DNA of 64,000 nt from contig OW203732.1 in the NCBI GenBank assembly GCA_934045075.1, positions 17,205,889-17,269,888 of the forward strand, written 5' to 3'. Positions within the stretch are counted from its first letter, which is position 1; each line of letters begins with the position of its first letter. The stretch is from Yponomeuta sedellus (Eukaryota; Arthropoda; Insecta; Lepidoptera; Yponomeutidae). Below, one piece after another: positions 1,421 through 53,771 of the stretch. The position numbers and the translations under genes were made by a program. The notes below the pieces were generated by a model. That model made no database searches and was not told where the DNA came from. It saw nothing but the letters and a program-made list of their open reading frames with translations.

Positions 1421-1590
1421 TATTTTTATTTTTAATGCACTAACCCGTGCTAAGGACAAATTTAAAAACCTATTTAGAGGCTAAAAATTTCACCCATTAA
1501 ATTCGAACCCGCAACCTCTGGCACGGATAGCCAGAGGTTGCGGGTTCGAATCCCGGCATGGGTGAAATTTTTAGCCTCTAAATAGGTTTT
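1421..1590. mobile_element. F-family tRNA-like foldback retroposon, copy F1
   Basis: Two inverted arms each hold the tail (cactaacccgtgctaagg or its complement), the module tttagaggctaaaaatttc and the T-arm half of a tRNA-like sequence (gggttcgaatcccgg). They join near ctctggcacggatagccaga. The insert is bounded by taaaattaaatctRtac at 1404-1420 and 1591-1607, a 17-bp TSD with one mismatch. The flanking duplication shows that the hairpin arrived as one insertion. Confidence 0.85.
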
Positions 1591-2221
1591 TAAAATTAAA
1601 TCTGTACAAAGTTATTTATTTTTAAAACGAACATTAATGATTTTTTCAATAATAAGTCAGTGCCACAAGTTTAATAAAAATCACATTAAAATTTTACTAT
1701 TATGTCGACAAATACGAGTTATTCCTATTTGATTTTTAAATTACAGCAGTTGATAGTTTTTTTAGTTTTTGATCTCAATATTATCTTTTTGCAATTTTCT
1801 ATCCTAGGTAACAATAGTGATGGTACTTTACTTTCTTTATACTTTATTGTACACTTAAAAATCGTACAGAAAACACCAAATTTACAAAATAAAAAGCTGG
1901 ACATGACGGGCTTATTTAATGTTGGTATGTTCATCGCAGCATTTCATTCTCTATCGCTCGCGGTGAATACCACTAATTTAAGATTCGACCACGCTTTGTG
2001 ATCGTTGTTATTAAATATCGGCATTGTTTCGGCTGCAACGTTTAATTTGTTTCGCTTCGTTCAATGTTTGTTTGTTGAAGACAGTTTTGTAACACTTGAT
2101 TTGCAAACAAGTTTGGGTGCAGAGAAATAAACGGTCAAAACAACTAAAAGCTAACGTGTTAAAGCAATGGTTGGCGCAAAAATAGGGAAATTTTGTTGCT
2201 CCGTTCCTGGGAATTAAAAAA

Positions 2222-2679
2222 ATATAGTTATATATTAAACGGGTCTAATTGCGATTATTTATTACGTAAAACGTGATCACCTTATTTCTGCTGTGTGCTT
2301 GCTATGTGGTGTCGGCCTAGAGAATAGCAACAACCCAAATTCTTCCCGCGGGTGTCGTAAAAGGCGACTAAGGGACACAAACCGAGGGGTGGGCAGCAAC
2401 GCCCCCTGCAGTACAATTCCACCAAACTGCGATCCCCAACCCGCGTGGGAATTATGTGCATTACCCCCCAATGATGGCACAACCTTGCGCTGTGGCGCTC
2501 ATTAGGGGAAGGCTATGTCCAGCAGTGGACTAATATAGCCTGAAGAAGAACCTTATTTCTTGACGTTATGACAGCGTTACAGTTGCCATGGTCTCGGGTA
2601 GACCATGCCGGGCTGCCCCGTTTAATATACCTTTAACTATGTATGAGTATCGCGAATCATTAAAAAATGTGTTAATACA
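2222..2679. mobile_element. A-family foldback element split by a nested R retroposon
   Basis: The left arm (tatattaaacgggtctaatt) runs to 2289, and the element resumes at 2551 and ends with gtatgagtatcgcgaatcat. The R insertion lies between two copies of ccttatttct (2280-2289 and 2551-2560), so the order of events is A first, R second. Confidence 0.8.
2290..2550 (+). mobile_element. R-family short retroposon with LINE-like tail
   Basis: About 260 bp: a head (gtgtcggcctagagaatagc), a middle (gtcgtaaaaggcgactaagg, then gatccccaacccgcg) and a 3' tail (gggaaggctatgtccagcag...gcctgaagaagaa). The tail is shared with the LINE fragments at 26225 and 52289, so this looks like a non-autonomous passenger or an internally deleted RTE-like LINE. 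Its 10-bp TSD is ccttatttct. Short open frames within it are not conserved between copies. Confidence 0.75.
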
Positions 2680-2700
2680 GTGACTTGAGTTGTACTTAAT

Positions 2701-2955
2701 TTTCTTCTTCTTCTTCTTCAGGCTTTATTAGTCCACTCCTGGACATAGCCCTCGCCTAATGAGCGCAAGGTTGTGCCATCATTGGAGAGTAGTGCCCATA
2801 ATCCCCACGCTGGGCATGCGGGTTGGGGATCGCAGTTTGAGTACTACAGGGGGCGCTGCGGCCCACCCCCCGGTTTGTATCCTTCAGTCGCCTTTTACGA
2901 CACCCGTGGGAAGAATTTGGGTTGGTGCTATTCTCTAGCCCGACACCACACAGTC
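2701..2955 (-). mobile_element. R-family short retroposon
   Basis: Full-length reverse-strand copy of the element at 2290-2550. It starts with a cttcttcttcttc run (the tail's GAA repeat) and ends in tagcccgacaccacac. It is flanked by acttaattt(t) at 2694-2703 and acttaacttt at 2956-2965, a probable 10-bp TSD with one mismatch. Confidence 0.75.
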
Positions 2956-2965
2956 ACTTAACTTT

Positions 2966-3644
2966 ACTGATTAAGTATCTAGATTACGTATACATGTAAA
3001 AAATATAGCTCAATATCAAAGGGACACCTTAAGGCATTTTAACTGAATGTGCTTTCAATTGCAGATAAGCAGGTTGTAATTTTCATGTGCCTATTAAATT
3101 TTACTTTTATTAATTTTGCGTCGTAATACTTCAGAGTAAAATAACTAAGGTTGCAGGTACATGCAAACGTTTCCAACTTCTAAACATGCTAAGGTTAATG
3201 TGTGCGTGTAATGATCTCGCTTTTTTATCCTTAGGTACACAAATAAACATTATTCTATTTGTATTTGTTTCATCTCTTGAAATAAGTAATGAACTTTGAT
3301 TAAATTCCCTTCAGTGAGGCACAGATTTAGGTCTTAGCCTGAAATTGAATCGCATTCCTCTCTATTTTCAGCCTATACTCTGCCATTCCTTCCGCACTTA
3401 TGTTCGGAAATCTCATTTGCAGAATATCGCCAAAGGGTCCGACGATATTTTCTATTGAGTTTTCAATAAGCCCCGTTTAAGTGCCGCAGTAGACGTTTAG
3501 GTTGTCAGCATAAAGCGATCACCAAAATAATTCGGTTTTGGCGTGTAGTAAAAGAATTTCTGTCAGTGATATAACTATTCTGAGCGCCAACTTCCGTCGA
3601 AGTTTCACTATCAGTAAGCCCACTCTTTGTAAATTTGATTTAAT
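2966..3644. other. No gene recognised
   Basis: AT-rich DNA ending at the TSD of the 5S-derived SINE. The 64-codon minus-strand frame at 3519-3713 runs into that SINE and has no recognisable motif. Confidence 0.5.
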
Positions 3645-3657
3645 AATCACCACACTT

Positions 3658-4021
3658 AAGCGCTCGTGGCCTAGGCGAACCGAGTGATTGGAATCAATCA
3701 CTGGGTTAAGCAATAACAGGCGCGGTCAGGTACGGGATGGGTGAGCGTCCCGTGACTACCGCTAGTGGCATTTTTCCGAGCGCTTCCGTGCTTCGCAAGG
3801 CACGTTAAGCCGTTGGTGCCGGCTGTCATATAATGGCAGTCGTTAAGCCATGTCAAAGGCCTTATGGGCGGCTTGATAACATCTGACAGTAAGGCTTGCC
3901 ACAGTCTTACAATCCTCCACCAACCCGGACCTGGCCCCCGTGGTGGAGTATGGCCTATACCTTCCTCAGGGAAGAGACCCGTGCCCCTCGGTGGGGACAT
4001 AATGGGTTGATGAAAAAAAAA
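3658..4021 (+). mobile_element. 5S rRNA-derived SINE (SINE3-type), full length
   Basis: The head resembles the 3' two-thirds of insect 5S rRNA. GTTAAGCAA (about 3704-3712) and GGATGGGTGAGCG (about 3735-3747) are the A-box and C-box regions of the pol III internal promoter, and the 30-nt distance between their starts equals that in 5S rRNA. Next comes a family-specific body (ctagtggcatttttccgagc, then aggccttatgggcggcttga) and a tail (gtggggacataatgggttga) ending in an A run. The 13-bp TSD aatcaccacactt lies at 3645-3657 and 4022-4034. At least eleven more copies or pieces lie in the window. The 110-codon minus-strand frame here is antisense to the SINE. Confidence 0.88.
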
Positions 4022-4099
4022 AATCACCACACTTCACACTAAATATTTATTTATAATTTATTCATTTTTTTTTTAATTATTAATATTACAGAGGCGAAA

Positions 4100-4205
4100 G
4101 TTTTTGAGGTGTATGTTTGTTAACTTTTCACGTCTAAACGTATTGAGCGATTTTAATAAAATTTGGTATGGAGTTTGGATGGAAATTTGGTATGGGACAA
4201 TCTTT
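4100..4205 (+). mobile_element. H-family repeat fragment
   Basis: Matches the left part of the next entry (ggcgaaagtttttgaggtgt, cacgtctaaacg, attttaataaaatttggtat) and breaks off after the ggtatggagttt region. Short CATCA tandem units follow at 4295-4340. Confidence 0.55.
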
Positions 4206-4335
4206 TTTTTAATAAAATTTATTTTCTCTAACACCGTGAGGTACAGCAATTATTTAAGGTTATACCAATGAGGTAAGGCCGCCAATCATACTATCACATC
4301 TCATCACATCATCACATCACGTCACATCCCATCAC

Positions 4336-4545
4336 ACTAATATTATAAACGCGAAAGTTTGTGAGTGTGTATGTTTGTTACTTCTTCATGTCTAAAGGGC
4401 TGGAGAGATTTTAATAAAATTAAGTATGGAGTTGGCTGACACCCTGGATTACCATAAGGCTACGTTTTACTGCGGGAAATATGTTATTCCCATTAGAAAA
4501 TCGATAAACCGCGAGTACCACCGCGGGGCACAGCTAGTAAATAAT
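4336..4545 (+). mobile_element. H-family AT-rich interspersed repeat, near complete
   Basis: Runs from actaatattataaacgcgaa to ccgcggggcacagctagtaa. This is a very common lepidopteran repeat architecture (mentioned from general familiarity). The ctag end would fit a non-autonomous Helitron, but I see no hairpin or host-site evidence that settles the class. Another copy, at 18168-19978, is split by a LINE. Confidence 0.6.
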
Positions 4546-4905
4546 AAGCAGTGGAAAAATAGAGTAGCGGAGTGATCAAATTCATCATAATTATTGAGCT
4601 GACCATGTTTGTTTAATTGGCTCAATATATTTCATTTATTTAGAGAAATTCGTTGTTGTTCGTGTTGACCAATATCTCTAAATAAATTAAACAAGGTCTG
4701 TTAAACTAATAGACTTATTCTAAACTAAACTAAACTAATTACTTATTAAACTCACGACATTTCTACCGGGTTGGCCGGAGGCGGCCTACACGAGCCTACA
4801 TTAAAAAATATAGTTTTAAGGTTGGTCTATCAGTTTCAAGTGTCATTCACGAGGTGCTCACTTGATTTTTCGTAGTAAAACACATTTACAATTAATATTA
4901 CCGGT

Positions 4906-5217
4906 TTATATATTAAACGTGTCAAATCTCGATTATTTATTAGGTAAAACGTAATTACCTTATTTCCCGACGTTTCGGCACCGGATCGGTCTGTTGACGT
5001 AGTGAGTGTTGTGTGTCGGCCAGCTGCGAAAAATTAATAGTGACTACCCACAATAATTGACTGTACTCGCCACTTCAGTCTACCCGAGACCACGGCAACT
5101 GTAACGCTGCCGAAACGTCGGGAAATAAGGTAATTACGTTTTACCTAATAAATAATCCCGATTTGACCCGTTTAATGTAATAACTATATATGAGTATCGC
5201 GAATCATTAATAAATAC
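4906..5217. mobile_element. A-family foldback retroposon, intact reference copy
   Basis: 312 bp bounded by an exact 13-bp direct repeat taatattaccggt (4893-4905 and 5218-5230). Its ends are inverted repeats: aaacgtgtcaaatctcgatt to tttcccgacgtttcggca on the left, and gctgccgaaacgtcgggaaa to aatcccgatttgacccgttt on the right. A central unpaired region covers about 5000-5085. The right end carries an extra gagtatcgcgaatcattaat outside the palindrome, followed by A-rich DNA. The long inverted repeats suggest a MITE, but the TSD length and asymmetric tail suggest retroposition. Confidence 0.8.
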
Positions 5218-5230
5218 TAATATTACCGGT

Positions 5231-5800
5231 GTGCCGAAACCCTAAGGGTAGAAGTGGATGCGTTATTAGGGCGTCCCTAGAGTCCTTTTCGCACACGTCA
5301 GCGCTTCTTCGGCATTTTTGAAGGGTTTTGCATAAGTGCTAAACGTTTTCCATTTAAAGGAATAGGGGTTTTAATATTGAAATAGCTTATTTCTATTTAT
5401 TGGCAGAAGAAAATGCCTTACGTGAGATTTATTTTTATACCAACGCTACCATAATGTCTACATAATTGGTTAAAAGTAATCAATGCCGGCCGGCCCCGGG
5501 AATTTTAGGAATTTAATAATTTGTTTTTTAAATTCCCAGTGCCAAATAAAATTTATACGTATAGAATTTAAATATCGAGATAGTATTTAAATATCTAGAT
5601 CTCAATCGGTGCTCGAACAGCTTTATACATAAATTATATATTGACGATGGCTACAAAGATACCTACATTAAATTTCCTAGATTTGGGTTATGCCACTGAT
5701 ATGGCTATGCCTCGCGGCATTGGCATATCAGTGGGTATCCCGGGTGCTCACCGTTATGTGGGAAAAAAGCTAGGGTATGGGAGTTCAAGTGATTTTATCT
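5231..5800. other. No gene recognised
   Basis: AT-rich spacer with short local repeats (tggcatatcagtgg and related). No coding or RNA feature recognised. Confidence 0.5.
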
Positions 5801-5819
5801 TATACCAATGAGGTACTGA

Positions 5820-7193: not shown

Positions 7194-7365
7194 ATATTCT
7201 TTTTCATGTACTAACCCGTGCTAAGGACAATTTTAAAAACCTGTTTAGAGGCTAAAAATTCCACCCATGCAGGGACTTGAACCCGCGACCTCTGGCACGG
7301 TTAACCAGAGGTCGCGGGTTCGAGTCCCTGCATGGGTGGAATTCTTAGCCTCCAAATAGGTTTTT
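7194..7365. mobile_element. F-family tRNA-like foldback retroposon, copy F2
   Basis: Two inverted arms meet at about 7299-7302. Both arms carry the same private variant in the T-arm region: tgcagggac on the left and gtccctgca on the right, where other copies have tgccgggat and atcccggca. Flanks aaaatattaaattt (7180-7193) and aaaatgttaagttt (7366-7379) are a probable 14-bp TSD with two mismatches. Confidence 0.75.
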
Positions 7366-7379
7366 AAAATGTTAAGTTT

Positions 7380-14920: not shown

Positions 14921-16175
14921 TACTTATGTATGCGGAATCTGGGATTCCAATAATTTTAAACGCAATGTCTGACCTCCATGGTCAAATTCGTTCTTTTTTT
15001 AAATACTGGCCGCTAATATTTTTCTCTTAATACGTTAGTGTTTTGTTTTTGTTGGGTTTAAAATGTCATATCGCTGAAAAAATGGAACTCACTCGTGAAA
15101 ATATTCGTGCTATGATTTATTACGATTTTTGACGTGGTTTAACGCAACAACAGTGCGTAGATCAATTAACTTCGACTTTTGGTGGTGAAGCTCCATCAAA
15201 AACGACTGTGTATCACTGGTTTAGTGAGTTTAATCGCGGGCGCAGTAAGCTCACGGACGAAGTTAAAGAAGGTCGCCCGAAATCGGTGGTTGTGACCCAA
15301 AATATTGAAGCTGTGCGTAAACTAATAATGCAAGACCGCCATGTTACGTATCGCGAGATAGAGGCTATTCTGGGCATTTGTATGACGAGCATTCATAGGA
15401 TATTACATGAACATTTGTCTGTAAAAAATATTTGTTCGCGTTGGATCCCGCACAACTTAACTCATGATCAAAAAGATGCTCGCGTCGAATGGTGCAAGAA
15501 AACCTTAAAAAAATTCAACGGAGGCGACTCAAAATCTGTTTATACATTCACAGGTGACGAATCCTGGATCTATGCGTACGATCCCGAAACTAAGCAACAA
15601 TCAACAGTTTGGGTGTTTCAAAATGAGCCGAACCCTACGAAAGTGGCTCGTGCAAAAAGCACTGTAAAGCAAATGGTGGCCTGCTTTTTTGGTATTAATG
15701 GCCATGCGGCTACAATACCACTGGAGAATCGCAGAACGATTAATTTGTTTGCCGGAAGTATTTGAAGAAATACGCCAAAACAACCAGCGACGCAGAATCA
15801 TACTTCACCATGGCAATGCCAGCTGTCATACATCTCAGGAAACAACTACATTTTTGGATGGTCAAAAATAGAATTGATGGGTCATCCACCGTACTGCCCT
15901 GATTTGGCTCCCAATGATTTCTATTTATTCCCAAATGTAAAGAATAAATTACGTGGTCAACGATTTTCGACCCGTGAAGATACCGTAGATGCGTTCAAAC
16001 AGCACGTTTAGGAGATACCTCAATCAGAGTGGAAAAAGTGTTTTACAAATTGGTTTCATCGAATGCAAAAGTGCATCGATCATAGTGGAGAATACTTTGA
16101 AAAACAATAAAAGCATAATTAGCCATATACATTTGTTTATTTTTTCTATTCCGCATACATAAGTAGCAGCCCTCG
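14921..16175 (+). mobile_element. mariner element, copy M1 (complete ends)
   Basis: 1,255 bp between TA dinucleotides (14919-14920 and 16176-16177). Terminal inverted repeats of about 28 bp: cataggctgctacttatgta on the left and the complement of cgagggctgctacttatgta on the right. It carries one transposase frame, now broken. Two sister copies lie at 41670-43353 and 54032-55315. Confidence 0.92.
15082..16110 (+). pseudogene. mariner transposase, broken (M1)
   Basis: About 343 codons from ATG at 15082 to TAA at 16110. The N-terminal helix-turn-helix region (MELTRENIRAMIYYDF... GLTQQQ) is cut by TGA at 15130-15132, where sister copies have CGA, a CpG-type C-to-T change. The main frame then stays open to about 15730, including the first catalytic aspartate (GDESW). 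There is a short deletion near 15540 and a frameshift in the region after ENRRT. The second aspartate region reads HHGNAS, with D replaced by G. A further stop interrupts the C-terminus (gtttaggag). Not functional. Confidence 0.9.
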
Positions 16176-18234: not shown

Positions 18235-19884
18235 TTTTTTTTTTTTTTTTTTTTTTTCACCCAGGAGAAACCCCAATTACGGGTACCACCGGCTCGGGGG
18301 AGCACAGTGGTTATGTCGGACTCCCCGCCCTGAAAAGGGCGGTATACCGACTAAAACTCCTGGGGTGTTCCTCCGCACCGCAAAGGACGGGGCCACGGGG
18401 ACGCTTGCGCACACTTCCGCGACCCCGTCTGCGGGCGCCCTTGCGGGCACTCCTCCGGGGGGATCTTTGTCCCCCCTACTCCGCTGAAGGCACTCCGGAA
18501 CACGCAGAGCGCCTTCCAGCACGGGACCTCTTAGTCGAGCGGCGGGCCCCCCGACCCACCGCCCGAAGGCCCCCGTTATGGCGGCAGACGGTCGGCATAC
18601 GCCCGCCGTCTGCGCCCGGTTCTCCGACGGCGGAGAGGGAGCGCAAGAGGATCATCCTCTCGCGCCCTCTCCGCCGCCTCCTTCCTCGCCATGACGGCCT
18701 CGCAGAACGCGAGGACCGCCCCCCAGGCCTCCTCGCTGCCGACCATCGCACTGACGATCGCCGGCAGCGAGAGGTCCGCCCCAATAGCCGCGGCCAGCTG
18801 GGCACGCGGCTCCGCCCATGCGGGGCACACGGCGCGCGTGTGCTGCGCCGTGTCCTCCGCCGCGTCGCAGTGGTGGCACGCCGTCGACGGCTCCCGACCC
18901 GCTATCCGGCACAGGTACACACCAAAGCATCCATGCCCGGTGAGGACCTGCGCCAGACGGTAGGTCAGGGCGCCGTGCCTGCGGTCGGCCCAGTCCCGAA
19001 GGACGGGCCGAACGGCGGCCACCACCTCGAGGCCGGCGGTAGGTCGCGCCAACCTCTCCCCCCACTCCCGGAACAGACCGTCGCGGGCTCCCTCTCTCCA
19101 CCGCACGATCTGCTCCGGAAGAGGCATCCCGCCGTTGGCGCGAACCTCCGCGCTGCGCCAGTAGACCTCCGCGAGTACCTCGGCTTCGAGGTCCCACGGA
19201 GGGCTACCAGCCAGCACCGTCGCCTCATACGAGGTGGTGCGGTACGCTCGGGCCAGCCGGGTCGCCATGACCCGCTGCGGGCGCCGCAGGAGGGTCCGGT
19301 TCACGGACCCTAGGGCGTCCACCCATATTGGCGCCCCGTAGAGCGCCATAGAGCGCACCACACCATCGTACAGGCGGCGACAGCTCCCTCCAGGCCCCCC
19401 GATATTAGGAAGCAGCCCCGAGAGCGCTCCGGCCAAGGCCACCAGCCTGGTGGCCAAGCGCCGGAAGTGCTCCGTGAACCTCCATCGACCGTCGAGCACG
19501 ATGCCCAAGTAGCGCATGTGCGGTGCGACGGCGATGGAGGTCCCACCCACCACAATGCTCATTCCTGGAGGCGGCGCGTTCCGAGGGCCGTGAAAGACCA
19601 CAGCCTCGGACTTATTGAGCGCCACCTCCAGGCCGAGGCTGCGAATCCTCCGCACGGCATGGGCGACACCCGCCGTGCCGAGGAGAGCCGCCTCCCTGTG
19701 GGTGCTGCCCTGGGCCGTCACGAGGGTATCGTCGGCGTAACATGTCACGCCGACCCCCCGCAAATTGGCCCCACGCAGCACCCAGTCGTAGCCGATGTTC
19801 CACAGGAGCGGTCCGAGGACCGACCGCTGCGGAACACCGCACGACATCGCGAAGGCGGACCACTCGTCCCGGGCCGGATATACT
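18235..19884 (-). mobile_element. R1-clade non-LTR retrotransposon, 5'-truncated
   Basis: Strikingly GC-rich against AT-rich flanks. On the minus strand it runs from a truncation point inside the reverse-transcriptase domain (about 19884), through the C-terminal coding region and about 320 bp of 3' UTR, to a 22-nt poly(A) tail (seen as T at 18235-18256). Truncation plus poly(A) is typical of target-primed insertion. The large plus-strand frame 18216-19313 is antisense to it. I could not define a TSD. Confidence 0.88.
18576..19847 (-). CDS. Reverse transcriptase C-terminal part, R1-clade LINE
   Basis: 423 codons from the first internal Met; the frame is open upstream to the truncation point, so this Met is not the true start. 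Residues 4-13 are the GVPQRSVLGP motif of the RT palm (usual GVPQGS; here R replaces G), and residues 37-41 are CYADD, holding the catalytic aspartates. The thumb and C-terminal region follow (MRYLGIVLD, AYRTTS.EA..VLAG.PP). At about residues 337-360 is a zinc-knuckle-like C-x2-C...H-x4-C cluster (ACHHCDAAEDTAQHTRAVC), characteristic of R1-clade proteins. The tail is basic. Open throughout but lacking the endonuclease and the first RT motifs, so not autonomous. Confidence 0.88.
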   Translation of the reverse strand: MSCGVPQRSVLGPLLWNIGYDWVLRGANLRGVGVTCYADDTLVTAQGSTHREAALLGTAGVAHAVRRIRSLGLEVALNKSEAVVFHGPRNAPPPGMSIVVGGTSIAVAPHMRYLGIVLDGRWRFTEHFRRLATRLVALAGALSGLLPNIGGPGGSCRRLYDGVVRSMALYGAPIWVDALGSVNRTLLRRPQRVMATRLARAYRTTSYEATVLAGSPPWDLEAEVLAEVYWRSAEVRANGGMPLPEQIVRWREGARDGLFREWGERLARPTAGLEVVAAVRPVLRDWADRRHGALTYRLAQVLTGHGCFGVYLCRIAGREPSTACHHCDAAEDTAQHTRAVCPAWAEPRAQLAAAIGADLSLPAIVSAMVGSEEAWGAVLAFCEAVMARKEAAERAREDDPLALPLRRRRTGRRRRAYADRLPP

Positions 19885-26312: not shown

Positions 26313-26838
26313 GTTTCAGGAATACCAAGTTTAACAGGAAGATAATACTGTTAGCCTTAAGTTTACCTCTGTATTTTACACTTTTAATGGTGTAAGAAAA
26401 CATTTTAATAAAAGTGGATGGGCGGTGGCGGATTACACGGCCGATGCTTTCTCGTGAAAAGTCTATAAATAAGCGTTAATTTTTAGATCATACTGCGCAA
26501 TGTGTTACGGGGCATTGGCGCCATCTAGCGGCACGATTTAAAAGGATCTGAGTAATGGCTACCCTGCTCTACTCAACGATATATAAGTGCATTCCACATG
26601 ACACGTATTTACAGAGTCAGAGCCTTCGCCGAGGCCACATGTTTTCGTTCCATGCGGTTTTAGCCAGTGACCCCCTACTACCGAACTGAACGACCTTTCA
26701 CGTCAAGAGTGAGAAGGAATACCAAAAGTAACAGCTTCTTAAAAGGAAAGGCTCTAGAGGTCGGAACATCGGACGTAAAGCAGGTTACATCCACATTTGA
26801 TGACATTCCCGACCTTCGCACTAAGCGATTTTCATCAT

Positions 26839-27620
26839 TTAAAAACCTATTTAGAGGCTAAAAAATTCACCCATGCCGGGATTCGAACCCGCAACCTCTG
26901 GCTATCCGTGCCAGCGCTCTACCAATTGAGCCAATGGGCGACTCACAGCATCAGTGAAATTTCGAACCTCTTTACACTATTCTCTGTATTACGTACAGGC
27001 AGCGACATCTGACTTAAGCAAATTTCATTACTTATAGCCCCGACTACCTACTTTGCAGTTAGGTTTAACATCGGAACGATATCACTGTTACATGATTATA
27101 CTATTTTTATTTTTAATGCACTAACCCGTGCTAAGGAACAAATTTAAAAACCTATTTAGATGCTAAAAATTTCACCCATGCCGGGATTCGAACCCGCAAC
27201 CTCTGGCTATCCGTGCCAGCGCTCTACCAATTGAGCCAATGGGCGACTCACGTGACTTTAGAGGCTAAAAATTTCACCCATGCCGGGATTCGAACCCGCA
27301 ACCTCTGGCTATCCGTGCCAGCGCTCTACCAATTGAGCCAATGGGCGACTCACGTGACTTTAGAGGCTAAAAATTTCACCCATGCCGGGATTCGAACCCG
27401 CAACCTCTGGCTATCCGTGCCAGCGCTCTACCAATTGAGCCAATGGGCGGCTCACGGCATCAGTCACGTGAGTCGCCCATTGGCTCAATTGGTAGAGCGC
27501 TGGCACGGATAGCCAGAGGTTGCGGGTTCGAATCCCGGCATGGGTGAGATTTTTAGCCTCTCAATAGGTTTTTAAATTTGTTCCTTAGCACGGGTTAGTG
27601 TATTAAAAATAAAAATAGTA
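26839..27620. mobile_element. F-family concatemer, copy F3 (782 bp, one TSD)
   Basis: Bounded by gattttcatcat at 26827-26838 and 27621-27632. Reading along the plus strand: one reverse-oriented tRNA-like unit with its 170-bp spacer and tail; then three tRNA-like units repeating at exactly 102-bp spacing (ttcacccatg at 27171, 27273, 27375), also reverse; then, after about 27455, one forward-oriented tRNA-like unit with the normal tail (cacgggttagtgtattaaaa). The forward unit folds as a cloverleaf: acceptor CGCCCAT/ATGGGTG, D arm, anticodon arm CTGGC-ACGGATA-GCCAG, T arm with TTCGAAT. The 99-codon plus frame here is translated repeat. Confidence 0.9.
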
Positions 27621-27724
27621 GATTTTCATCATCATTCGTAATGCGCACGGCCAAAGTGTGGAATACCTTGCCGACATTTATCACCTGAATCTCTTTGAGA
27701 TGCATGTGAACAGGCTTCTTCTGG

Positions 27725-41660: not shown

Positions 41661-41720
41661 TAGTAGAAGAGAGTACTGCTACTTATGTATGCGGAATAGA
41701 AAAAATAAACAAATGTATAT

Positions 41721-42126
41721 GGGTTCGAGTCCCGGCATGGGTGAAATTTTTAGCCTCTAATTAGGTTTTTAAATTTGTTCCTTAGCACGGGTTAGTGCAT
41801 TAAAAATAAAAATAGTGTAATCATGTGGGTACAGTGATATCGTTCCGATGTTAAACCTAACTGCAAAGTAGGTAGTCGGGGCTGTAAGTAATGCAATTTG
41901 CTTAAGTCAGATGTCGCTGCCTGTACGTAATACAGAGAATATTGTAAAGAGGTTCGAAATTTCACTGATGCCGTGAGTCGCTCATTGGCTCAATTGGTAG
42001 AGCGCTGGTACGGATAGCCAGAGGTTGCGGGTTCGAGTCCCGGCATGGGTGAAATTTTTAGCCTCTAAATAGGGTTTTAAATTTGTTCCTTAGCACGGGT
42101 TAGTGCATTAAAAATAAAAATAGTGT
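41721..42126 (+). mobile_element. F-family tRNA-like retroposon, copy F4 (dimer)
   Basis: Two forward-oriented units. The first starts inside the B box (gggttcgagtcccggcatgg) and includes the tail and 170-bp spacer; the second has a whole tRNA-like unit (ctcaattggtagagcgctgg) and tail (cacgggttagtgcattaaaa). Exact 10-bp TSD aaatgtatat at 41711-41720 and 42127-42136 inside mariner sequence that is otherwise collinear with M3. Confidence 0.92.
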
Positions 42127-42147
42127 AAATGTATATGGCTAAATATG

Positions 42148-43184
42148 CTTTTTCTAAGTATTCTCCACTATGATCGATGCACTTTTGCATTCGATAAAAC
42201 CAATTTGTACAACACTTTTTCCACTCTGATTGAGGTATCTCCAAAACGTGCTGTTTGAACGCATCTACGGCATGTTCACGGGTCGAAAATCATTGACCAC
42301 TTAATTTATTCTTTAAATTTGGGAATAAATAGAAATCATTGGGAGCCAAATCAGGGTTGTACGGTGGATGACCCATCAATTCTATCCAAAAATGTAGTTG
42401 TTTCCTGAGATGTATGACAGCTGGCATTGTCATGGTGAAGTATGATTCTGTGTCGCTGGTTGTTTTGGCGTATTTCTTCAAATACTTCCGGCAAACAAAT
42501 GGTCATGTACCACTCCGAATTAACCGTTCTGCGATTCTCCAGTGGTATTGTAGCCACATGGCCATTAATACCAAAAAAGCAGGCCACCATTTGCTTTACA
42601 GTGCTTTTTGCACGAGCCACTTTCGTAGGGTTCGGCTCATTTTGAAACACCCAAACTGTTGATTGTTGTTTAGTTTCGGGATCGTACGCGTAGATACAGG
42701 ATTCGTCACCTGTGTAGATATTATAAACAGATTTTGAGTCGACTCCGTTGAATTTTTTTAAGGTTTTCTTGCACCATTCGACGCGAGCATCTTTTTGATC
42801 CTGAGTTAAGTTGTGCGGGATCCAACGCGAACAAATTTTTTTTACAGACAAATGTTCATGTAATATCCTATGAATGCTCGTCATACATATGCCCAGAATA
42901 GCCTCTATCTCGCGATACGTAACATGGCGGTCTTGCATTATTAGTTTTCGCACAGCTTCAATATTTTGTGGCACAACCACCGATTTCGGGCGACCTTCTT
43001 TAACTTCGTCCGTGAGCTTACTGCGCCCGCGATTAAACTCACTAAACCAGTGATACACAGTCGTTTTTGATGGAGCTTCACCACCAAAAGTCGAAGTTAG
43101 TTGATCTACGCACTGTTGTTGCGTTAAACCACGTCGAAAATCGTAATAAATCATAGCACGAATATTTTCACGAGTGAGTTCCAT
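42148..43184 (-). pseudogene. mariner transposase, broken (M2)
   Basis: Starts MELTREN at 43184 and is open for about 277 codons from there. It keeps the helix-turn-helix region, the first aspartate (TGDES) and the second (HHDNAS). A short deletion after TTTFLD shifts the frame; the third aspartate region (NPDLAPNDFYLFP) reads on in another frame. The C-terminus has a further stop (tcaatgatt) and a worn end. The open frame can be extended upstream of the true start, but the family start is the MELT methionine. Confidence 0.88.
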
Positions 43185-43359
43185 TTTTTCAGCAATATGA
43201 CATTTTAAACCCAACAGAAACAAAACACTAACGTATAAGAGAAAAATATTAGCGGCCAGTATTAAAAAAAGAACGAATTTGACCATGGAGACCAGACATT
43301 GCGTTTAAAATTATTGGAATCCCAGATTCCACATACATAAGTAGCAGCCTGTGTTCATA

Positions 43360-44420: not shown

Positions 44421-44496
44421 CCTTAACGTCCTTTATAATACTATTATAAACATACATAAACATTAAGTTATAATAGGAAGCATGATAGGAACTATA

Positions 44497-44662
44497 CTAT
44501 TTTTAATGCACTAACCCGTGCTAAGGACAATTTGAAAAACCTATTTAGAGGCTAAAAATTCCACCCATGCCGGGATTCGAACCCGCGACCTCTGGCTATC
44601 CGTGCCAGCAGAGGTCGCGGGTTCGAATCCCGGCATGGGTGGAATTTTTAGCCTCTAAATAG
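44497..44662. mobile_element. F-family tRNA-like foldback retroposon, copy F5
   Basis: Long left arm with the full tail (ctatttttaatgcactaacc), T-arm half and anticodon arm; the right arm is shorter, ending gcctctaaatag. Exact 15-bp TSD atgataggaactata at 44482-44496 and 44663-44677. The tail end abuts the TSD on the left, so the insertion is minus-oriented. Confidence 0.93.
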
Positions 44663-44689
44663 ATGATAGGAACTATAAATGGGATATAC

Positions 44690-45365: not shown

Positions 45366-45660
45366 CATAACCTCACGCCTGTATAAACCTAATTAGAGGC
45401 TAAAAATTCCACCCATGCCGGGATTCGAACCCGCGACCTCTGGCTAACCGTGCCAGCCTCTAATTAGGTTTTTAAAGTTGTCCTTAGCACGGGTTAGTGC
45501 ATTAAAAAATATATATATATACTCACGCATGTATCCTAGAGGGGTAGGCAGAGACCAGGGACTGCCACTTGCTATGATCCTGATAGATCACCTTCGTTTC
45601 ATCAACGTTCATACGTCGTTGCATGCACGCATGCCGGTTCTGGGTGCTTTGTTAGTTTTA
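45366..45660 (-). mobile_element. Z-family retroposon interrupted by F6
   Basis: Reverse copy: cataacctcacgcctgtat, then after the F6 insert ctcacgcatgtatcctagag, ggtaggcagagaccagggac, tcatcaacgttcatacgtcg, ttgcatgcacgcatgccggt. Confidence 0.75.
45385..45521. mobile_element. F-family tRNA-like foldback retroposon, copy F6
   Basis: Left arm from aaacctaattagaggctaaa to the anticodon arm; the right arm is only gcctctaattaggtttttaa plus the forward tail ending in an AT run. Both arms share a private taattag variant (others ctaaatag). TSD ctcacgcctgtat/ctcacgcatgtat (45372-45384, 45522-45534), 13 bp with one mismatch. Confidence 0.88.
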
Positions 45661-46825: not shown

Positions 46826-46829
46826 TGAA

Positions 46830-47050
46830 TTTTAAAAACCTGTTTAAAGGCTAAAAGTTCCACCCATGCCGGGATTCGAACCCGCGACCTCTGGCTACCC
46901 GTGTCAGCGCTCTTTCCAACTGAGCTAATGGGCAACTCACCGGCATCAGTAAAATTTCGAACCTATTTACACTATTCTCTGTATTACGTACAGGCAGCGA
47001 CATCTGGCTGAAGTAAATTGCATCACTTACGGCCCCGAGTACCTACCTAT
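46830..47050 (-). mobile_element. F-family tRNA-like retroposon, copy F7 (single unit)
   Basis: One reverse unit: aaacctgtttaaaggctaaa, cacccatgccgggattcgaa, gctctttccaactgagctaa, then the spacer (ctctgtattacgtacaggca, gcgacatctggctgaagtaa). No tail copy and no clear TSD; more diverged than the others. Confidence 0.75.
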
Positions 47051-47912: not shown

Positions 47913-48266
47913 TATTTATACAACTTGCGAAGGGTAAAACGGAAAGAGAAAATAACGAAAGCTGACCACACCACCACGTGGGACTAAAGCTGGAAAGAGA
48001 GAGAGCCTATAAAGAGAGCGTGCATTAAATACCAAATGTAAGACAAAACGCTTCGAGAAAAGGTAGGTAGTGCCTCGCTTGTGTTGTCAAGGGCACAAAC
48101 TGTAAACTCAAATAAGACTGAAATGGGAGTGGGTAACCAAATAACAATACTAAATTACCCTCATTATAAACAAGACTAAGTTCTTTTTGCTAACAAGACT
48201 AACTTAATCTTATTACTTGGTTAACCCCATTTTAGAGGTAAATAAATATGGACAATCTATCTATAT

Positions 48267-48649
48267 TTAAAAACTTATTTAGAGGCTAAAAATTTCACCC
48301 ATGCCGGGATTCGAACCCGCAACCTCTGGCTATCCGTGCCAGCGCTCTACCAATTGAGCCAATGGGCGACTCACCGGCATCAGTGAAATTTCGAACCTCT
48401 TTACACTATTCTCTGTATTACGCACAGGCAGCGACATCTGGCTTAAGCAAATTGCATCACTTACAGCCCCGACTACCTACTTTGCAGTTAGGTTTTACAT
48501 CGGAACGATATCACTGTACCAACATGATTATACTATTTTTATTTTTAATGCACTAACCCGTGCTAAAGACAAATTTAAAAACTTATTTAGAGGCTAAAAA
48601 TTGCACCCATGCCGGGATTCGAACCCGCAATTAAAAATAAAAATAGTAT
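48267..48649. mobile_element. F-family tRNA-like retroposon, copy F8
   Basis: A reverse-oriented unit, spacer, tail and second partial unit, then at gaacccgcaa an abrupt switch to only 19 bp of forward tail (ttaaaaataaaaatagtat). Exact 13-bp TSD aatctatctatat (48254-48266, 48650-48662). The forward tail next to the TSD marks the 3' end of the insertion, so most of the body is inverted relative to it. Confidence 0.92.
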
Positions 48650-48662
48650 AATCTATCTATAT

Positions 48663-48748
48663 ACTCGACGATGGTAGTGAAAATGTAATTACCTTAGTTG
48701 CCGACGTTTACCTTATACATAATCCAGATTAGACCCGTTTAATTAACT
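48663..48748. mobile_element. A-family element, short copy
   Basis: aatgtaattaccttagttgc, cgacgttta, then taatccagattagacccgtt, taatt. Most of the centre is lost. Confidence 0.55.
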
Positions 48749-48759
48749 ATGATAATCAA

Positions 48760-49615
48760 GTGTTCACGTATTAAAATTCTCCGTTCAGAAAACAGCACCT
48801 CGACTAATCTGCTTTTTTAGCTTTCGGGATTGATCCACGGTCTTTTTATTAAAACAGTAAAAACTCAACGCATTATAGTTAAGTTAAGCTGCTCCTGTCC
48901 CTTATGCGAAAACTTTTGCGATGCCCAAACTCGGTTTATTTTAAGTCCAGTCCATTTGGAACGCTATAACAAGATTTTATTGTTTACGTTTTGCTATAGC
49001 TGTGTAATGAATGAACTGTAAAAATGGGACTTATTCCCTTTTTTAATTTAGCGGTGTTGGAGCCATGATTGCCACAGAGAGGTGAATTTCATAAAAAAAA
49101 TCCTCAGGCTCAAAAAAACCTCTTATTTATTTTTTAGTTCAATCTCACCTATTTGTTCAATTTAATTCAAATTAATTCAAATATTTTTGTTAATTATAAA
49201 AACTAACTGCCTTATTTATAGAAACACAATTCCTCTAAAACACGCCTATATTTTATCTGTGATTACATATTTTCTTGTGAAATCTCCACCACAGACTATT
49301 TTAGTCAACGTTTTTGAAGTGCATAAGGAACTGTGTTTTTTATAAATAACACCAAATATGTTTCCTTAAAAACGTCAAAGTTGTTAGTTTCACAATTAAT
49401 AGATTATGCGGTGAAGAACGTAACAAAAACAGTCCACATGTATTATTTTCAGAAAAAGAATACTTATTGACTCACAAAACTTCGAACTCATTCGAATTTT
49501 AATTTATGTACTTGGAATATCTTCCCTATCTAAACCTGAGTACTCAGTGATGAGTATTTGAAATGAGAATGAGATGATATGTGACCAGCCCATGGCCGCC
49601 ACATTTTTTAATGTA
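48760..49615. other. No gene recognised
   Basis: AT-rich spacer. A 63-codon frame (48830-49021) has no motif. Confidence 0.5.
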
Positions 49616-49619
49616 CGCG

Positions 49620-49728
49620 ATATCATCCCTTTGTTTGTCCCCACTGCTGGGGCACGGCTCTCTTTCTGCACCGCAGGAAGGTTAGGCTATACTCCACCTC
49701 GAGGGCCAAGCCCATGGTGGAGTATTTG
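49620..49728 (-). mobile_element. 5S-derived SINE, 3' tail
   Basis: tgtccccactgctggggcac, caggaaggttaggctatact, ccacctcgagggccaagccc, then tggtggagtat. Confidence 0.7.
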
Positions 49729-49734
49729 GAGTAA

Positions 49735-50450
49735 ATGTGAAGTTCAGGAAAAGCTCGGGAAAAACTGATTCCTGAACTATTTATAATATTATGTAAGTTC
49801 TTGTACGAAACTCTTCATGGGCGAGTCCAACTCAAATTTGTCCGGCTTTTTTTAGAAAGGGAAAGAACCTTTTAGATGGCCCATGATTAATTATGTCAGG
49901 ATCTGGAACCTTATTAGGCGCACCAAATCCTATCGGAATCCTTACGTTTGCGATAGCAATTATTATAAAACTTTACACTTAGACGATGGGAATCATTCAG
50001 GATGTGTGTGTAATACAGGGATATATTATACGTAAGATCCACGAGAACGTGTTTTTTATTCATATATTTTATTTCCTTACTGCACTAATGTACAAGCGCT
50101 TGCTTAATGTGAGAAGCATTCTCTTCCACCAAACCTTTGGTGCTTTTTCTTGAAGTCGTTGTTTTTATATAATTTTATTTAAAATAGAAGTATTATTACT
50201 ATTGCACAGTAGTTATAGTGCGGTATCTAAAACGAGCTGTAAACCGGCCCTAAAACAGTACCGGAACCTACAAACATCGACTAATGGGATTCAGAAGCGA
50301 ACTGGTACCATAACTTCACCCCCTGAGGTATTTGAATCTATTTTCATTAGCTGCACGGCGGCGCCCGCACAACTTTCTTGCGGCGCTCGGCGGGTGATTG
50401 GCCGATCTAATATCAATTACCGGAACTTTTGCTCTGGTTATCGACGATTG
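49735..50450. other. No gene recognised
   Basis: AT-rich spacer leading into the satellite. A short repeat-like stretch cgaactcaaatttgtccggc near 49825 is unassigned. Confidence 0.45.
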
Positions 50451-50454
50451 ATTA

Positions 50455-51597
50455 TAATTTAATTACAAGCGAGCTACTGCGGTACGCTGAAGCTGTAGCT
50501 ACTCGCGATCGAGGGGAACTATACTATACTGCGGTCGTAGTAATTGGACTTTCAAAAACATGTTCGGTTTCGCGGGCTATATCCCAGTCCCACACCGTAA
50601 GTTCCACAAGCTATGAGGCCGCCTTCGCCGGATCAGGATCACATCAAAATTTAATTAAAAATGTGCTACTGCGTTACGCTATGGATCTAGCTACTCGCGA
50701 TAGTGGCAAAGTATGCAATAATCGGGGCGAACTATATTGCGGTCATTGTTATTGGACATTAAATAACCAGTTGGGTTTCGCGAGTCACATTCCAGTCCCA
50801 CACCGTAAGTCCCACAACCTATGAGGTCGTCGTCGTCGGATCACGATGGGGAGAAAATTTCGTTACTCTTTGGCTCTAGCTACTCGCGATCGTGGCAAAC
50901 TATGCAACGATCGTGGCGAACTATACTGCGGTCACTGTAATCGGACATTAAAGAACCAGTTGGGTTTCGGGAGTCAGATCGCACTCCCACACCGTAAGTC
51001 CCACAGCCTATGAGGTCGTCGTCGTCGGATCACGGTGGAGAGAAAATCATAATTTATTTACAAAAGGGCTACTGCAATACTCTGTGGCTCTAGTTACTCG
51101 CGATCGTGGCAAACTATGCAACGATCGTGGCGAACTTAATGCGGTCGTAGTAATCCGACTTTCACAAACCAGCGGGGTTTCGAGGGCCACATGCCGGTCC
51201 CACATCGTAAGTTCCACAACCTATGAGGTTGTCGCCGTCCGATCGCGATGAGGAGGTCATCGTTATTTAATTACAAGCTGTAATTACGCTGTGACCCTAG
51301 CTACTAGCGATTTGTCGCGAACTATACAATGATCGTCGCGTACTATACTGTGGCCGTTGTAATAAAATTTAAATAAAAAGCTGGGTTTCGCGAATCACAT
51401 CTCGGTCCCACGCCGTAAGTCCCGCAACCTATGAGGTCGCCTTCGCCGGATCACAATGAGGAGGGTATAGTAGTTTAATTAGAAGCGGGCTACCGCGTTA
51501 CGCTGGGGCTCTAGGTACTCGCAATCGTGGAAAACTGTGCAGCGATCGAGGCGAACTATACTGTGGTGATTGTAATCGGGCGAACCCGGCCCGCATG
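50455..51597. repeat. Diverged satellite, 5.5 units of 189-213 bp
   Basis: The anchor ctatgagg recurs at 50611, 50819, 51008, 51221 and 51429. Each unit has the same order: gctac-gc-ttacgct, agctactcgcgatcgtggca, aactatgcaacgatcgtggc, gaactatactgcggtc, gtttcgcgagtcaca, cacaccgtaagtcccacaac, ctatgaggtcg and a gtcgtc-ggatca block. Neighbouring units differ at many sites, so the array is old. The GTAAGT hexamer is kept in all five complete units. A 131-codon frame (50429-50824) does not persist across units, so coding is unlikely. Confidence 0.88.
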
Positions 51598-51602
51598 CAT
51601 GT

Positions 51603-51800
51603 AGAGATAGATAGAGAACACTTTATTGTACATAAAAAAGGAAATCACACAGATATTTCTTAACCTAAGAGTATAGACGGCGGCCTTATCACTAAAAGTG
51701 ATCTCCTACAAACAACCTTTAGATGGACTGGAGCAATATATTGCAGAAGGAAGTAGATGCACAAATAAATCAAAATATTTCAGATACATTTGAATAAAAT
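51603..51800 (-). mobile_element. LINE 3' UTR, reverse
   Basis: agatagatagagaacacttt, attgtacataaaaaaggaaa, cggcggccttatcactaaaa, gtgatctcctacaaacaacc, atggactggagcaatatatt. It directly abuts the satellite. The forward counterpart is at 58150-58330. Confidence 0.7.
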
Positions 51801-51909
51801 ATGCTTAATTAAGAAAATAATTATATTAACCCTAAATAGATACATACAAATCATGATTTACTAACATAAATAGAAAGTGATATGATAATATATCATTATC
51901 ATTTACATT

Positions 51910-52025
51910 GTCGTTCATTATTCGTGGGGACCCATTACGTCCCCACCCAGGGGAACTGGTCTCTTCCCTTAGGAAGGTATAGGCCATACTTCACCACGGG
52001 GGCCAAGTCCGGTTTGGTATTTAAA
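51910..52025 (-). mobile_element. 5S-derived SINE, 3' tail
   Basis: cgtccccacccaggggaact, ggtctcttcccttaggaagg, ccatacttcaccacgggggc, aagtccggtttggtat. Confidence 0.75.
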
Positions 52026-52139
52026 AAAATATATATTTTGTATAAATACATACATTTATAGGCATAACAATATATGTAGAGGACATAAATAAAAAGTCGC
52101 ATGTAGCGACTAATGCCTATTGATAAAGCGGAAAATGGT

Positions 52140-52215
52140 GGTCAGGATCGTGGCAAGTGGCAAATCCTGGTCTGGGCGTACTCCTCTGAAATACAGGCGT
52201 GAGTTTATGTGATGT
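52140..52215 (+). mobile_element. Z-family retroposon tail
   Basis: gtcaggatcgtggcaagtgg, caaatcctggtctgggcgta, ctcctctgaaatacaggcgt, gagtttatg; no TATG expansion. Confidence 0.65.
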
Positions 52216-52261
52216 AATTTAATTGTTTGAATGTAATAACTGTGTGATAGTTATCATAGCA

Positions 52262-52545
52262 TAGTTATATATTAAACGGGTCTAATCGCGTTAGTAGGCT
52301 GGCCATATCTCGCGAAGAACCGACAATCGTTGGAGTAAACGTGTTCTTGAGTGGAGACCGCGACTCGGCAAACGTAGTGTAGGACGCCCTCCGACCAGGT
52401 GGGATGAAGGCTGAAGACAGGGCGCCATGGCGCTCATTAGGGGAGGGCTATGTCCAGCAGTGGACTACATAATATAGCCTGAAGAAGAAGAAGAATCGCG
52501 ATAATTTAATATATAACTATGTATGAGTATCGCGAGTCTTTAAGA
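52262..52545. mobile_element. A-family element split by an RTE-like LINE end
   Basis: Left piece 52262-52288 (agttatatattaaacgggtc, taatcgcg); right piece from 52494 (tcgcgataatttaatatata, actatgtatgagtatcgcga). The intervening LINE end is flanked by aatcgcg on both sides (52282-52288, 52493-52499). Confidence 0.75.
52289..52493 (+). mobile_element. RTE-like LINE 3' end, 5'-truncated
   Basis: Includes the C-terminal coding relic: conceptual reading across shifts gives GWPYLARR..NR.SKRVLEW.P-like and GRPPTRW-like sequence, typical of the end of lepidopteran RTE-type LINE proteins. The tail gcgctcattaggggagggct, atgtccagcagtggactaca and a GAA run follow. Broken by stops. Confidence 0.7.
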
Positions 52546-52729
52546 AATTGTCATTATAGCTCCTTTATTTAGTAGAATAGAGCCGAAAGTAGAATCAATC
52601 GGCATTTACCAGGTAAGCACACAACATCGTAGACCCCGTCTTTGCTCACCATCAGGCGTGACTGGGGTCAAATATAACCTGTCTTACTTAAAAAAGATCT
52701 CATAGTTCTGTCAGTTCTGTGGTCAGTTC

Positions 52730-52855
52730 TTGAATCGCTATCCGTTTCCTCGACGTTGCAATTGCACCCGTGACCACGACAACTGTTGAAGCGACAACAT
52801 TGCCGAAATCTGAATTGAGGTAATTACATTTTACATAATAGGTAAGTTTATTGCA
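52730..52855. mobile_element. A-family element, right-half fragment
   Basis: tgaccacgacaactgttgaa, aacattgccgaaatctgaat, tgaggtaattacattttaca. Diverged. Confidence 0.55.
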
Positions 52856-53046
52856 AAATAAACTTACCTATTAATGAGTAGGTTGCAGAGTAAACATTTA
52901 TTTATTCAATTTATTAGGTGTACGAAACCGATCACAACTATTACAAAATTTAATTATAAGTGGATCTATTCTATAATACATGCAAAGTTCTAGTCTCAAG
53001 CAAGCCATAATGTAATTTCGAGTATCTTCATAAAGTATAACATTTT

Positions 53047-53121
53047 TAAAAACCTATTTAGAGGCTAAAAATTATAAAATTAATCCTTAGCACGGGTTAG
53101 TGCATTAAAATAAAAATAGTA
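53047..53121. mobile_element. F-family mini-insertion, copy F9 (75 bp)
   Basis: Only the two outer parts remain: taaaaacctatttagaggct (reverse) joined near ataaaattaa to ccttagcacgggttagtgca and the forward tail. Exact 16-bp TSD taaagtataacatttt (53031-53046, 53122-53137). No tRNA-like sequence is left, yet it has a full-length TSD. Confidence 0.9.
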
Positions 53122-53636
53122 TAAAGTATAACATTTTAAGCATAAACATACAAACTACACAACTGTGTAAGTTCAAGATTTCTGCTATTTTCTCTGTAAA
53201 AACGCCACTTCGAATACAGTTTCGTGAAGGATTTTTTTGTAAACATCTGTTAATGGCTAAGTTGTTTGTAGTGGCTAAGTAGTTAGGTAGTCGATAAATA
53301 AATCATGGTACGCAATGTAGAGTTCTCAATCAAATCTTGATTATCAATAAAGTAAAGCCTGATGATATCGTACAACCTTATACTTACCAGTCCTATCGAC
53401 AAATTGTATCTATTGCTTGTTAAGTAAAACATTTTCTTTGGATAAGGATAATTATGATGTTTCAATTACTAGCTAGGTACACAGGTAGTGATTATATTGA
53501 TGCGTGCTTAGCATGATCAGTGTAATAAGCACAGACATATTCATTAATGATAATAACTTCCATACAATGCTGTCACCTGTCATGGTCCCAGATTAGGATG
53601 CCCTGATGATGAAATAATGAATGAATGATAAATGAT

Positions 53637-53771
53637 TATATTATTTTTAATGCACTAACCCATGCTTAAGGACAATTTTAAAAACCTATTTAGAGGCTAA
53701 AAATTCCAGCCATGCCGGGACTCGAACCCGCGACCTCTGGCTAACCGTGCCAGCCTCTAAATAGATTTTTA
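53637..53771. mobile_element. F-family tRNA-like foldback retroposon, copy F10
   Basis: Reverse-oriented tail, T-arm half (gccgggactcgaacccgcga) and anticodon arm, then a short forward piece gcctctaaatagatttttag. Exact 14-bp TSD gaatgataaatgat (53623-53636, 53772-53785). Confidence 0.92.

What the first reader, a model, noticed from the sequence alone, without database searches (positions are those of the whole stretch)
1421..53771. F family: ten tRNA-like insertions, mostly hairpins, with retroposon-type TSDs
Copies at 1421, 7194, 26839, 41721, 44497, 45385, 46830, 48267, 53047 and 53637 share a tail (cacgggttagtgcattaaaa, then a taaaaatagt-type end), a 20-bp module and a tRNA-like body. Nine have direct repeats of 10-17 bp. 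Seven carry inverted copies of the 3' region. Classical twin priming inverts a 5' segment without duplicating the 3' part, so these inverted duplications suggest two template copies primed from both ends of the break, or a hairpin template. Direct sequence observation; mechanism inferred.
Basis: partly seen in the sequence, partly recalled or inferred. Interest (0 to 1): 0.88.

Follow-up and report, generated by a model that had tools for sequence, protein, structure and literature searches.

The report
Hairpin SINE mobilised Penelope-style
A very abundant tRNA-derived repeat in this genome inserts mostly as hairpins with two fixed ends, the mark left by Penelope-like retroelements, so this short parasite seems to ride on Penelope machinery instead of the usual LINE machinery.

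Summary
The copies belong to a tRNA-Ser-like SINE with a 309-bp repeating unit; its tail motif occurs about 90,000 times in this 657-Mb genome. In a local sample, 57 of 73 scored tail-ended copies are hairpins. Their outer ends lie at two fixed internal points about 42 nt apart: P (unit ~263) on the inverted arm and T (~305) on the sense arm. Of 66 two-armed elements none proved P/P or T/T; three have another end. This is the signature of Penelope-like elements (PLEs): two adjacent internal RT start sites, an optional 30-40 bp "tail", tandem units, inverted copies (PMC11167929, PMC3846280). The genome carries an abundant GIY-YIG PLE with the same layout: ends 31-38 nt apart, one of each in the five pairs read, TSDs of 11-12 bp, 28 head-to-head and 0 tail-to-tail neighbours. 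I conclude that the SINE is mobilised in trans by PLE machinery. Sequence homology to the PLE examined is inconclusive, and the exact partner was not found. Ten literature searches listed no tRNA SINE assigned to PLE machinery.

The parts
1416..1597 (-). hairpin copy: T (tail) end at left, P end at right; arms meet in the anticodon stem palindrome
   Evidence: TSD AGATTTAATTTTA
7197..7368 (-). hairpin copy of the older tail variant; P end at right
   Evidence: TSD with one mismatch
26837..27619 (+). hairpin copy: P arm runs through more than one unit (with two extra 102-bp pieces), then a sense arm to T
   Evidence: TSD GATTTTCATCAT at 26827-26838 and 27621-27632
41721..42128 (+). non-hairpin sense copy, 1.3 units, T end
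   Evidence: TSD AAATGTATATGG at 41711-41722 and 42127-42138
44498..44662 (-). hairpin copy, 54-bp perfect arms
   Evidence: TSD at 44482-44496 and 44663-44677
45382..45517 (+). hairpin copy: P arm 261>189, sense arm 242>T
   Evidence: TSD with one mismatch
46828..47046 (-). copy ending at P, no tail, no clear TSD (unit 50-266)
48265..48653 (+). P arm of more than one unit (264>1, 309>208) with a sense arm of about 20 nt to T
   Evidence: TSD AATCTATCTATAT
53039..53124 (+). short hairpin copy
   Evidence: TSD at 53030-53046 and 53121-53137
53641..53771 (-). hairpin copy with short P arm
   Evidence: TSD at 53623-53636 and 53772-53785
41979..42052 (+). tRNA-Ser(GGA)-like domain within a unit (others at 26866, 27171, 27273, 27376, 27473, 48294)
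   Evidence: ARAGORN; Rfam RF00005

Best explanation
The F family is a non-autonomous, tRNA-Ser-headed SINE that is reverse-transcribed and inserted by Penelope-like element (PLE) machinery. SHOWN: copies end at two fixed internal points, P (unit ~263) and T (unit ~305), about 42 nt apart; a typical insertion has an antisense arm starting at P on one side and a sense arm ending at T on the other, inside one TSD, mostly 12-14 bp; about a quarter of the P arms run on into a further unit; a young GIY-YIG PLE in the same genome shows the same layout. INFERRED: a dimeric PLE enzyme cuts both strands of an AT-rich site, leaving two 3' overhangs; one overhang starts reverse transcription at T and the other at P inside a multi-unit (or circular) SINE RNA; each cDNA stops, often in the folded tRNA region; the two antisense cDNAs are joined, which gives a head-to-head hairpin with the tail on one side only.
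For: Fixed ends: 57 hairpins (P on the inverted arm, T on the sense arm) and 16 plain copies among 73 scored tail-ended copies; the score itself requires P and T, so the test is in the rest: of 9 further two-armed elements none proved P/P or T/T, five are P/T by script or by hand (L007, L015:6660, L034, L040, L060), L015:6033 is probably P/T, and three have another end (L002:2146, L012, L039). First element base after the TSD at unit 254-265 in 23 of 24 junctions without extra bases. Genome scale: 98,113 exact sites just before P, 37,940 of them running exactly into the tail; with 9 of 12 (unbiased) to 42 of 51 (all) local continuing tails exact, roughly half of the sites end near P. Templates: 21 distinct unit boundaries (22 rows, one locus twice) all have the same spacing although linkers of 1-15 bases were allowed; 16 of 57 P arms exceed 264 nt and none stops at 243-284 nt, near the unit start. 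PLE in the genome: RT probe gives 554 candidates, 150 scored, best E 2.7e-60, about 30 open frames of 791 aa; GIY-YIG end read in L078. PLE ends: P at 1115-1119, T at 1151-1156; with the sampled loci 9 ends in the P cluster and 9 in the T cluster, five of them in stretches fetched for the purpose. Five pairs read are one P and one T: C9, C1, L013, L015, L031; C9 and C1 have TSDs of 11 and 12 bp; L031 is a PLE nested in a SINE copy, each with a 12-bp TSD. Among the 150 PLE RT matches, neighbours within 6 kb are 28 head-to-head, 0 tail-to-tail, 12 same-strand at 2692-2706 bp. Cut-site preference is similar on both strands. Published PLE enzymology matches: both strands cut and extended, two adjacent internal start sites, 30-40 bp tail between them, AT-rich targets, multi-copy RNA (PMC11167929).
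Against: No partner PLE sharing clear sequence with the SINE was found. The P-T stretch of the SINE aligns in register with PLE family A at p 0.0004-0.0008 against shuffles, but another place in the PLE scores higher, and 16 of 3042 (15 of 3017) AT-matched genomic windows reach the score, some probably SINE tails. The young SINE's 42 nt between P and T is a little longer than the PLE distances (33, 37, 38; about 31-32 in two sampled pairs). The PLE paper reports starts not homologous to the cut DNA, whereas the SINE P junction shows microhomology of 2 nt or more in 15 of 24 against 3.9 expected. That paper saw no start-site difference between strands, which alone would allow the P/P and T/T copies not seen here. 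In one SINE copy (L002:2146) the inverted arm starts at unit ~207.
Confidence: 0.82

Rival explanations
1. L1-type twin priming by an ordinary LINE partner: the second DNA end anneals to one favoured unpaired A/U-rich stretch (P) of the SINE RNA.
For: Microhomology at P; P lies among the windows of lower predicted opening energy; L1 inverted copies depend on microhomology (PMC2912911, passages), and U5 snRNA was primed in one single-stranded loop in a twin-priming model (PMC4476161, passages).
Against: Alu and SVA copies are almost never inverted (1 of 5554 and 4 of 477 in PMC2912911; 0.02% and 0% in PMC12016303); in cell assays 5' inversion came from human L1 in human cells apart from one Nimb-2_DR insert (PMC4245944). 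None of 10 LINE downstream stretches has the tail. It does not explain why the genome's PLE has the same two kinds of end.
Confidence: 0.13
2. Snap-back: one cDNA folds on itself in the anticodon stem and copies itself, making the hairpin.
For: Four scored hairpins and one unscored copy (L002:2146) share the joint at unit 192/199 in the anticodon palindrome; arm ends coincide within 20 nt in 23 of 57 against 12.4 expected (p 0.0006).
Against: Many inverted arms are longer than the sense arm and hold extra units, for example L004, L008, L028, so they cannot be copies of it. Snap-back does not predict a fixed P end.
Confidence: 0.03
3. The template is a circular RNA (retrozyme-like) copied round and round, instead of linear multi-unit RNA; PLE machinery may still do the copying.
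For: Constant unit boundaries, no pile-up of P-arm ends at the unit start, 11 of 57 P arms of 285-365 nt, near one unit.
Against: No ribozyme family matched in a unit or a tandem stretch. The genome also holds tandem copies that could be transcribed. A stop at the next folded tRNA region explains the arm lengths as well.
Confidence: 0.15

Closest known systems
Penelope-like elements (Poseidon of Anolis carolinensis, PMC11167929; Pen2a_Av of Adineta vaga, PMC3846280; D. virilis Penelope as cited there)
   Same: two adjacent internal RT start sites, optional 30-40 bp tail on one side, tandem units, inverted copy at one end, short TSD, AT-rich target
   Different: the SINE encodes no protein, has a tRNA-like domain, a 309-bp unit and about 90,000 tail motifs; about 42 nt between its two ends; microhomology at P
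Lepidopteran tRNA SINEs (PxSE, HaSE; PMC8010984, PMC3272025)
   Same: tRNA-derived, dispersed, a few hundred bp
   Different: listed tails are mostly simple repeats, some like a LINE; the passages seen mention no hairpins or tandem units
Metazoan retrozymes (PMC7229834)
   Same: about 300-bp units in tandem, non-autonomous, PLE suggested as a helper
   Different: no hammerhead found here; a tRNA-like domain instead
L1 twin priming (PMC12016303, PMC2912911)
   Same: both DNA ends prime reverse transcription, inverted segment, TSDs of similar size, microhomology
   Different: L1 breakpoints are spread along the RNA 3' part with short overlaps; here one fixed second site and arms that share more than 15 nt in 46 of 57

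Membership tests
tRNA-derived SINE | tRNA-like domain with pol III boxes | tested here: met
   Rfam tRNA E 1e-6 and ARAGORN tRNA-Ser(GGA); A and B box match by recalled consensus only; transcription not tested
tRNA-derived SINE | dispersed, short, TSD-flanked | tested here: met
   exact repeat of at least 8 bp kept in 39 of 58 two-armed and 11 of 16 plain copies
SINE mobilised by a LINE | 3' end shared with a LINE of the genome | tested here: inconclusive
   0 of 10 LINE downstream stretches; only the 150 best of 14,974 RT candidates were scored
Penelope-like element (autonomous) | RT plus GIY-YIG ORF in the element | tested here: not met
   the 309-bp unit is too short for such an ORF; so the SINE is not itself a PLE
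PLE-type integration | two fixed internal end points some 30-40 nt apart | tested here: met
   P ~263 and T ~305, about 42 nt, slightly over the published range; the genome's PLE 31-38 nt
PLE-type integration | tandem units and head-to-head inverted copies, tail on one side | tested here: met
   PLE comparison
PLE-type integration | RNA recognition sequence shared with a PLE | tested here: inconclusive
Retrozyme | hammerhead ribozyme | tested here: not met
   no hammerhead match at E up to 5
PLE-type integration | enzyme starts at both sites on this RNA | not testable with these tools
   needs biochemistry

The most novel reading that the evidence does not exclude
A tRNA-derived SINE that, by anatomy, is mobilised by Penelope-like elements instead of LINEs: a further kind of partnership in which a pol III-type RNA offers two internal start sites to a PLE dimer, so that most new copies are born as hairpins.
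Probability: 0.72. Interest if true: 0.87.

Novelty: new variant of a known kind. Interest (0 to 1): 0.78.

Why it matters
SINEs are normally tied to LINEs. A SINE that uses PLE machinery would add a new helper class. Its tens of thousands of short copies would give a natural record of PLE start-site choice, second-strand priming and cDNA joining, steps that the in vitro PLE work left open. It would also explain a large source of hairpin DNA, and so of possible double-stranded RNA, in this genome.

Tried and rejected
Pol III termination at TTTTT as the cause of P: an equal T5 run at unit ~236-240 gives no clear ends (one junction scored at 236, L017:5816, looks like a mis-assigned P). LINE partner: 10 LINE downstream stretches without the tail, best chance-like match E 0.06, output cut after the first subjects. 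PF01541 search found one hit, which I read by recall as a host SLX1-like exon; that model scores PLE endonucleases weakly (20.9 bits, under the cut-off, for my probe), so it was not taken as absence. Accessibility of P by RNA folding: among the more open windows but not the only one. Sequence homology of SINE tail to PLE family A: inconclusive. Second PLE family 3' stretches (L084, L085): no SINE similarity, P and T not reached. Viral collection: 0 exact matches to two patterns. Sharing of rare variants by both arms (7 shared, 110 in one arm only; 0.45 shared expected with permuted partners) suggests one source RNA, but gene conversion between arms could do the same. The microhomology test chose TSDs with a mild preference for ends near the element, which may raise it somewhat.

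Rows dropped: one search listed 98 elements; 73 were scored. The 25 left out are 10 sense copies ending at P, 4 with P on the left only, 7 other or fragmentary, and 4 mixed, anti-left or edge rows (L002:2146, L015:6033, L015:6660, L060:1). The contig-1 sample was chosen by exact + strand tails, so copies without a tail are mostly invisible there; random loci plus window gave 22 scored hairpins and 3 plain tail-ended copies, and 10 P-ended copies without a scored tail. Of 200 planned random stretches only the first 20 were delivered on, and 18 exist.
Full report
What was checked. The tail motif occurs 11 times in the window against 0.01 expected and about 90,000 times in the genome against 1 in the reversed control. 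The ten listed copies are real. Nine have TSDs and seven have inverted arms; 48267 is an eighth with a very short sense arm.

Unit. Boundaries found in 66 genome loci and the window define a 309-bp unit: 22 rows, 21 distinct (L006 overlaps L005), all with the same spacing though the pattern allowed linkers of 1-15 bases. Copies with the older tail variant mostly fall outside that pattern. Unit 163-231 is a tRNA-like domain. Downstream lie a T5 stretch (256-260), P (~263), a small stem-loop GCACGGGTTAGTGC, and T (~305).

Sample and counts. I parsed 18 random 10-kb loci, the window, and 47 loci (L001-L008 without the overlapping L006, and L027-L066) around the first listed exact + strand tails on contig 1. 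Of 98 elements, 73 tail-ended ones were scored: 57 hairpins, 16 plain. In the part not chosen by tails, 22 scored hairpins stand against 3 plain tail-ended copies. The hairpin share is the same in young and old copies: 32 of 41 with at least 95% identity, 25 of 32 below.

Ends. In the scored hairpins the antisense arm starts at P and the sense arm ends at T; this is part of the scoring rule. Nine more two-armed elements lie outside the score: none proved P/P or T/T, three (L002:2146, L012, L039) have another end, the rest read as P/T, L015:6033 with less certainty. L048, called T/T by the first script, reads as P/T. An exact repeat of at least 8 bp around the whole element is kept in 39 of 58 two-armed and 11 of 16 plain copies; of 49 repeats counted 33 are 12-14 bp. 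In 51 of 57 hairpins the arms share sequence, in 46 by more than 15 nt. Microhomology of at least 2 nt at P is seen in 15 of 24 junctions without extra bases, against 3.9 when TSDs are swapped; 15 of 39 junctions have extra bases or imperfect ends and were left out of that test. Genome-wide, 98,113 exact sites lie just before P and 37,940 run exactly into the tail. Since 9 of 12 continuing tails in the unbiased sample, or 42 of 51 in all, are exact, about 48-53% of the sites end near P. This is an estimate; the planned upstream control did not complete.

Arms and template. In 37 of 57 hairpins the P arm, and in 36 the sense arm, ends at unit 180-260, the tRNA region and its flank; the two ends coincide within 20 nt more often than permuted partners (23 of 57 against 12.4; p 0.0006). 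Sixteen P arms exceed 264 nt and so run on into another unit, and none stops at 243-284 nt, near the unit start. Some tail ends reach a few bases into the next unit (for example L033, L064). So the RNA extends beyond the unit on both sides: it is multi-unit, or circular.

Why not L1-type twin priming. Inverted Alu and SVA are almost absent, and in cell assays 5' inversion came from human L1 apart from one insert. A fixed second site, templates that run past the unit and one fixed difference between the two ends are not L1 features.

Why Penelope. A PLE enzyme from Anolis cuts and extends both strands and starts at two adjacent internal RNA sites; the optional 30-40 bp tail is the stretch between them, and PLEs lie in tandem (PMC11167929, parts 1 and 2 of 4 read, plus passages). 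Pen2a_Av has an inverted pLTR, a 31-bp tail optionally on one inverted pLTR, and a 9-bp TSD (PMC3846280, passages). Among these 150, neighbours within 6 kb are 28 head-to-head, 0 tail-to-tail and 12 same-strand at one unit. Five fetched stretches and L031 show PLE ends at 1115-1119 and 1151-1156: 38 nt apart in the C9 pair, 37 in the C1 pair, 33 in L031. Blast of the PLE end region against all held loci gives 9 P-type and 9 T-type ends; a tenth at the P position (L020) is only the break made by a SINE insertion; three short cross-hits and the source itself are not counted. The five pairs read are one P and one T: C1, C9, L013, L015 and L031. L031 holds a PLE nested in a SINE copy, read by hand with a 12-bp TSD for each.

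What stays open. The partner PLE is not named. The SINE tail aligns with PLE family A around the ORF start better than shuffles, but not uniquely. Microhomology at P and the absence of P/P and T/T copies need explaining; one RNA held by a dimer, with T taken first, would do, and shared rare variants of the two arms (7 against 0.45 expected; 110 more in one arm only) fit one source or later gene conversion. Circular template is not excluded. The organism was not identified; an insect, probably a moth or butterfly, is my recall-based guess.

Literature. Ten searches listed no paper that, by title, abstract start or passages seen, assigns a tRNA SINE to PLE machinery. [quoted passage not shown] PMC8010984 was seen as outline, passages and part of its results, PMC3272025 as abstract and passages, PMC7229834 as passages. 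Most subscription papers are not in that library.

Noticed in passing
window 4909-5215, 857-999, 2222-2668, 59972-60126, 48680-48750: Other PLE-like hairpins: the longest match (5085-5215) shares the ACCACGGCA...GCCGAAACGT core with the genome's PLE (5071-5126), and copies lie as inverted pairs, in the clearest case (4909-4983 and 5085-5215) with a longer 3' end on one side.
   Followed up: partly
L020 4795-5119: A SINE copy (4832-5010) sits inside a PLE end region, close to the PLE's own P point.
   Followed up: no
window 26837-27455: Inside the large hairpin a 102-bp tRNA piece (unit 151-252) is repeated in tandem with the same five extra bases at the joint, which looks like repeated copying from the RNA 5' end or later local duplication.
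   Followed up: no
window 18576-19847 (-): Fragment of what looks like a LINE reverse-transcriptase reading frame in a 63% GC stretch; Rfam calls a mir-3389 match inside it (19782-19848), so that miRNA family may be transposon-derived.
   Followed up: no
window 42351-43286, 54475-55182, 15208-15765: Three mariner-like transposase frames (named by recall).
   Followed up: no
L016 4591, L050 642, L063 669: A different repeat (AACRGTGCRAACCTCTTTACACCATT) shares about 20 nt with the SINE unit near position 115-136; SINE copies lie in it at L050 and L063.
   Followed up: partly
G000:C5:21072321 and C26:1239662/1240343 (L084, L085): A second PLE family (about 50% identity to the probe) with a longer C-terminal reading frame; the C26 copies are a head-to-head pair.
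   Followed up: partly
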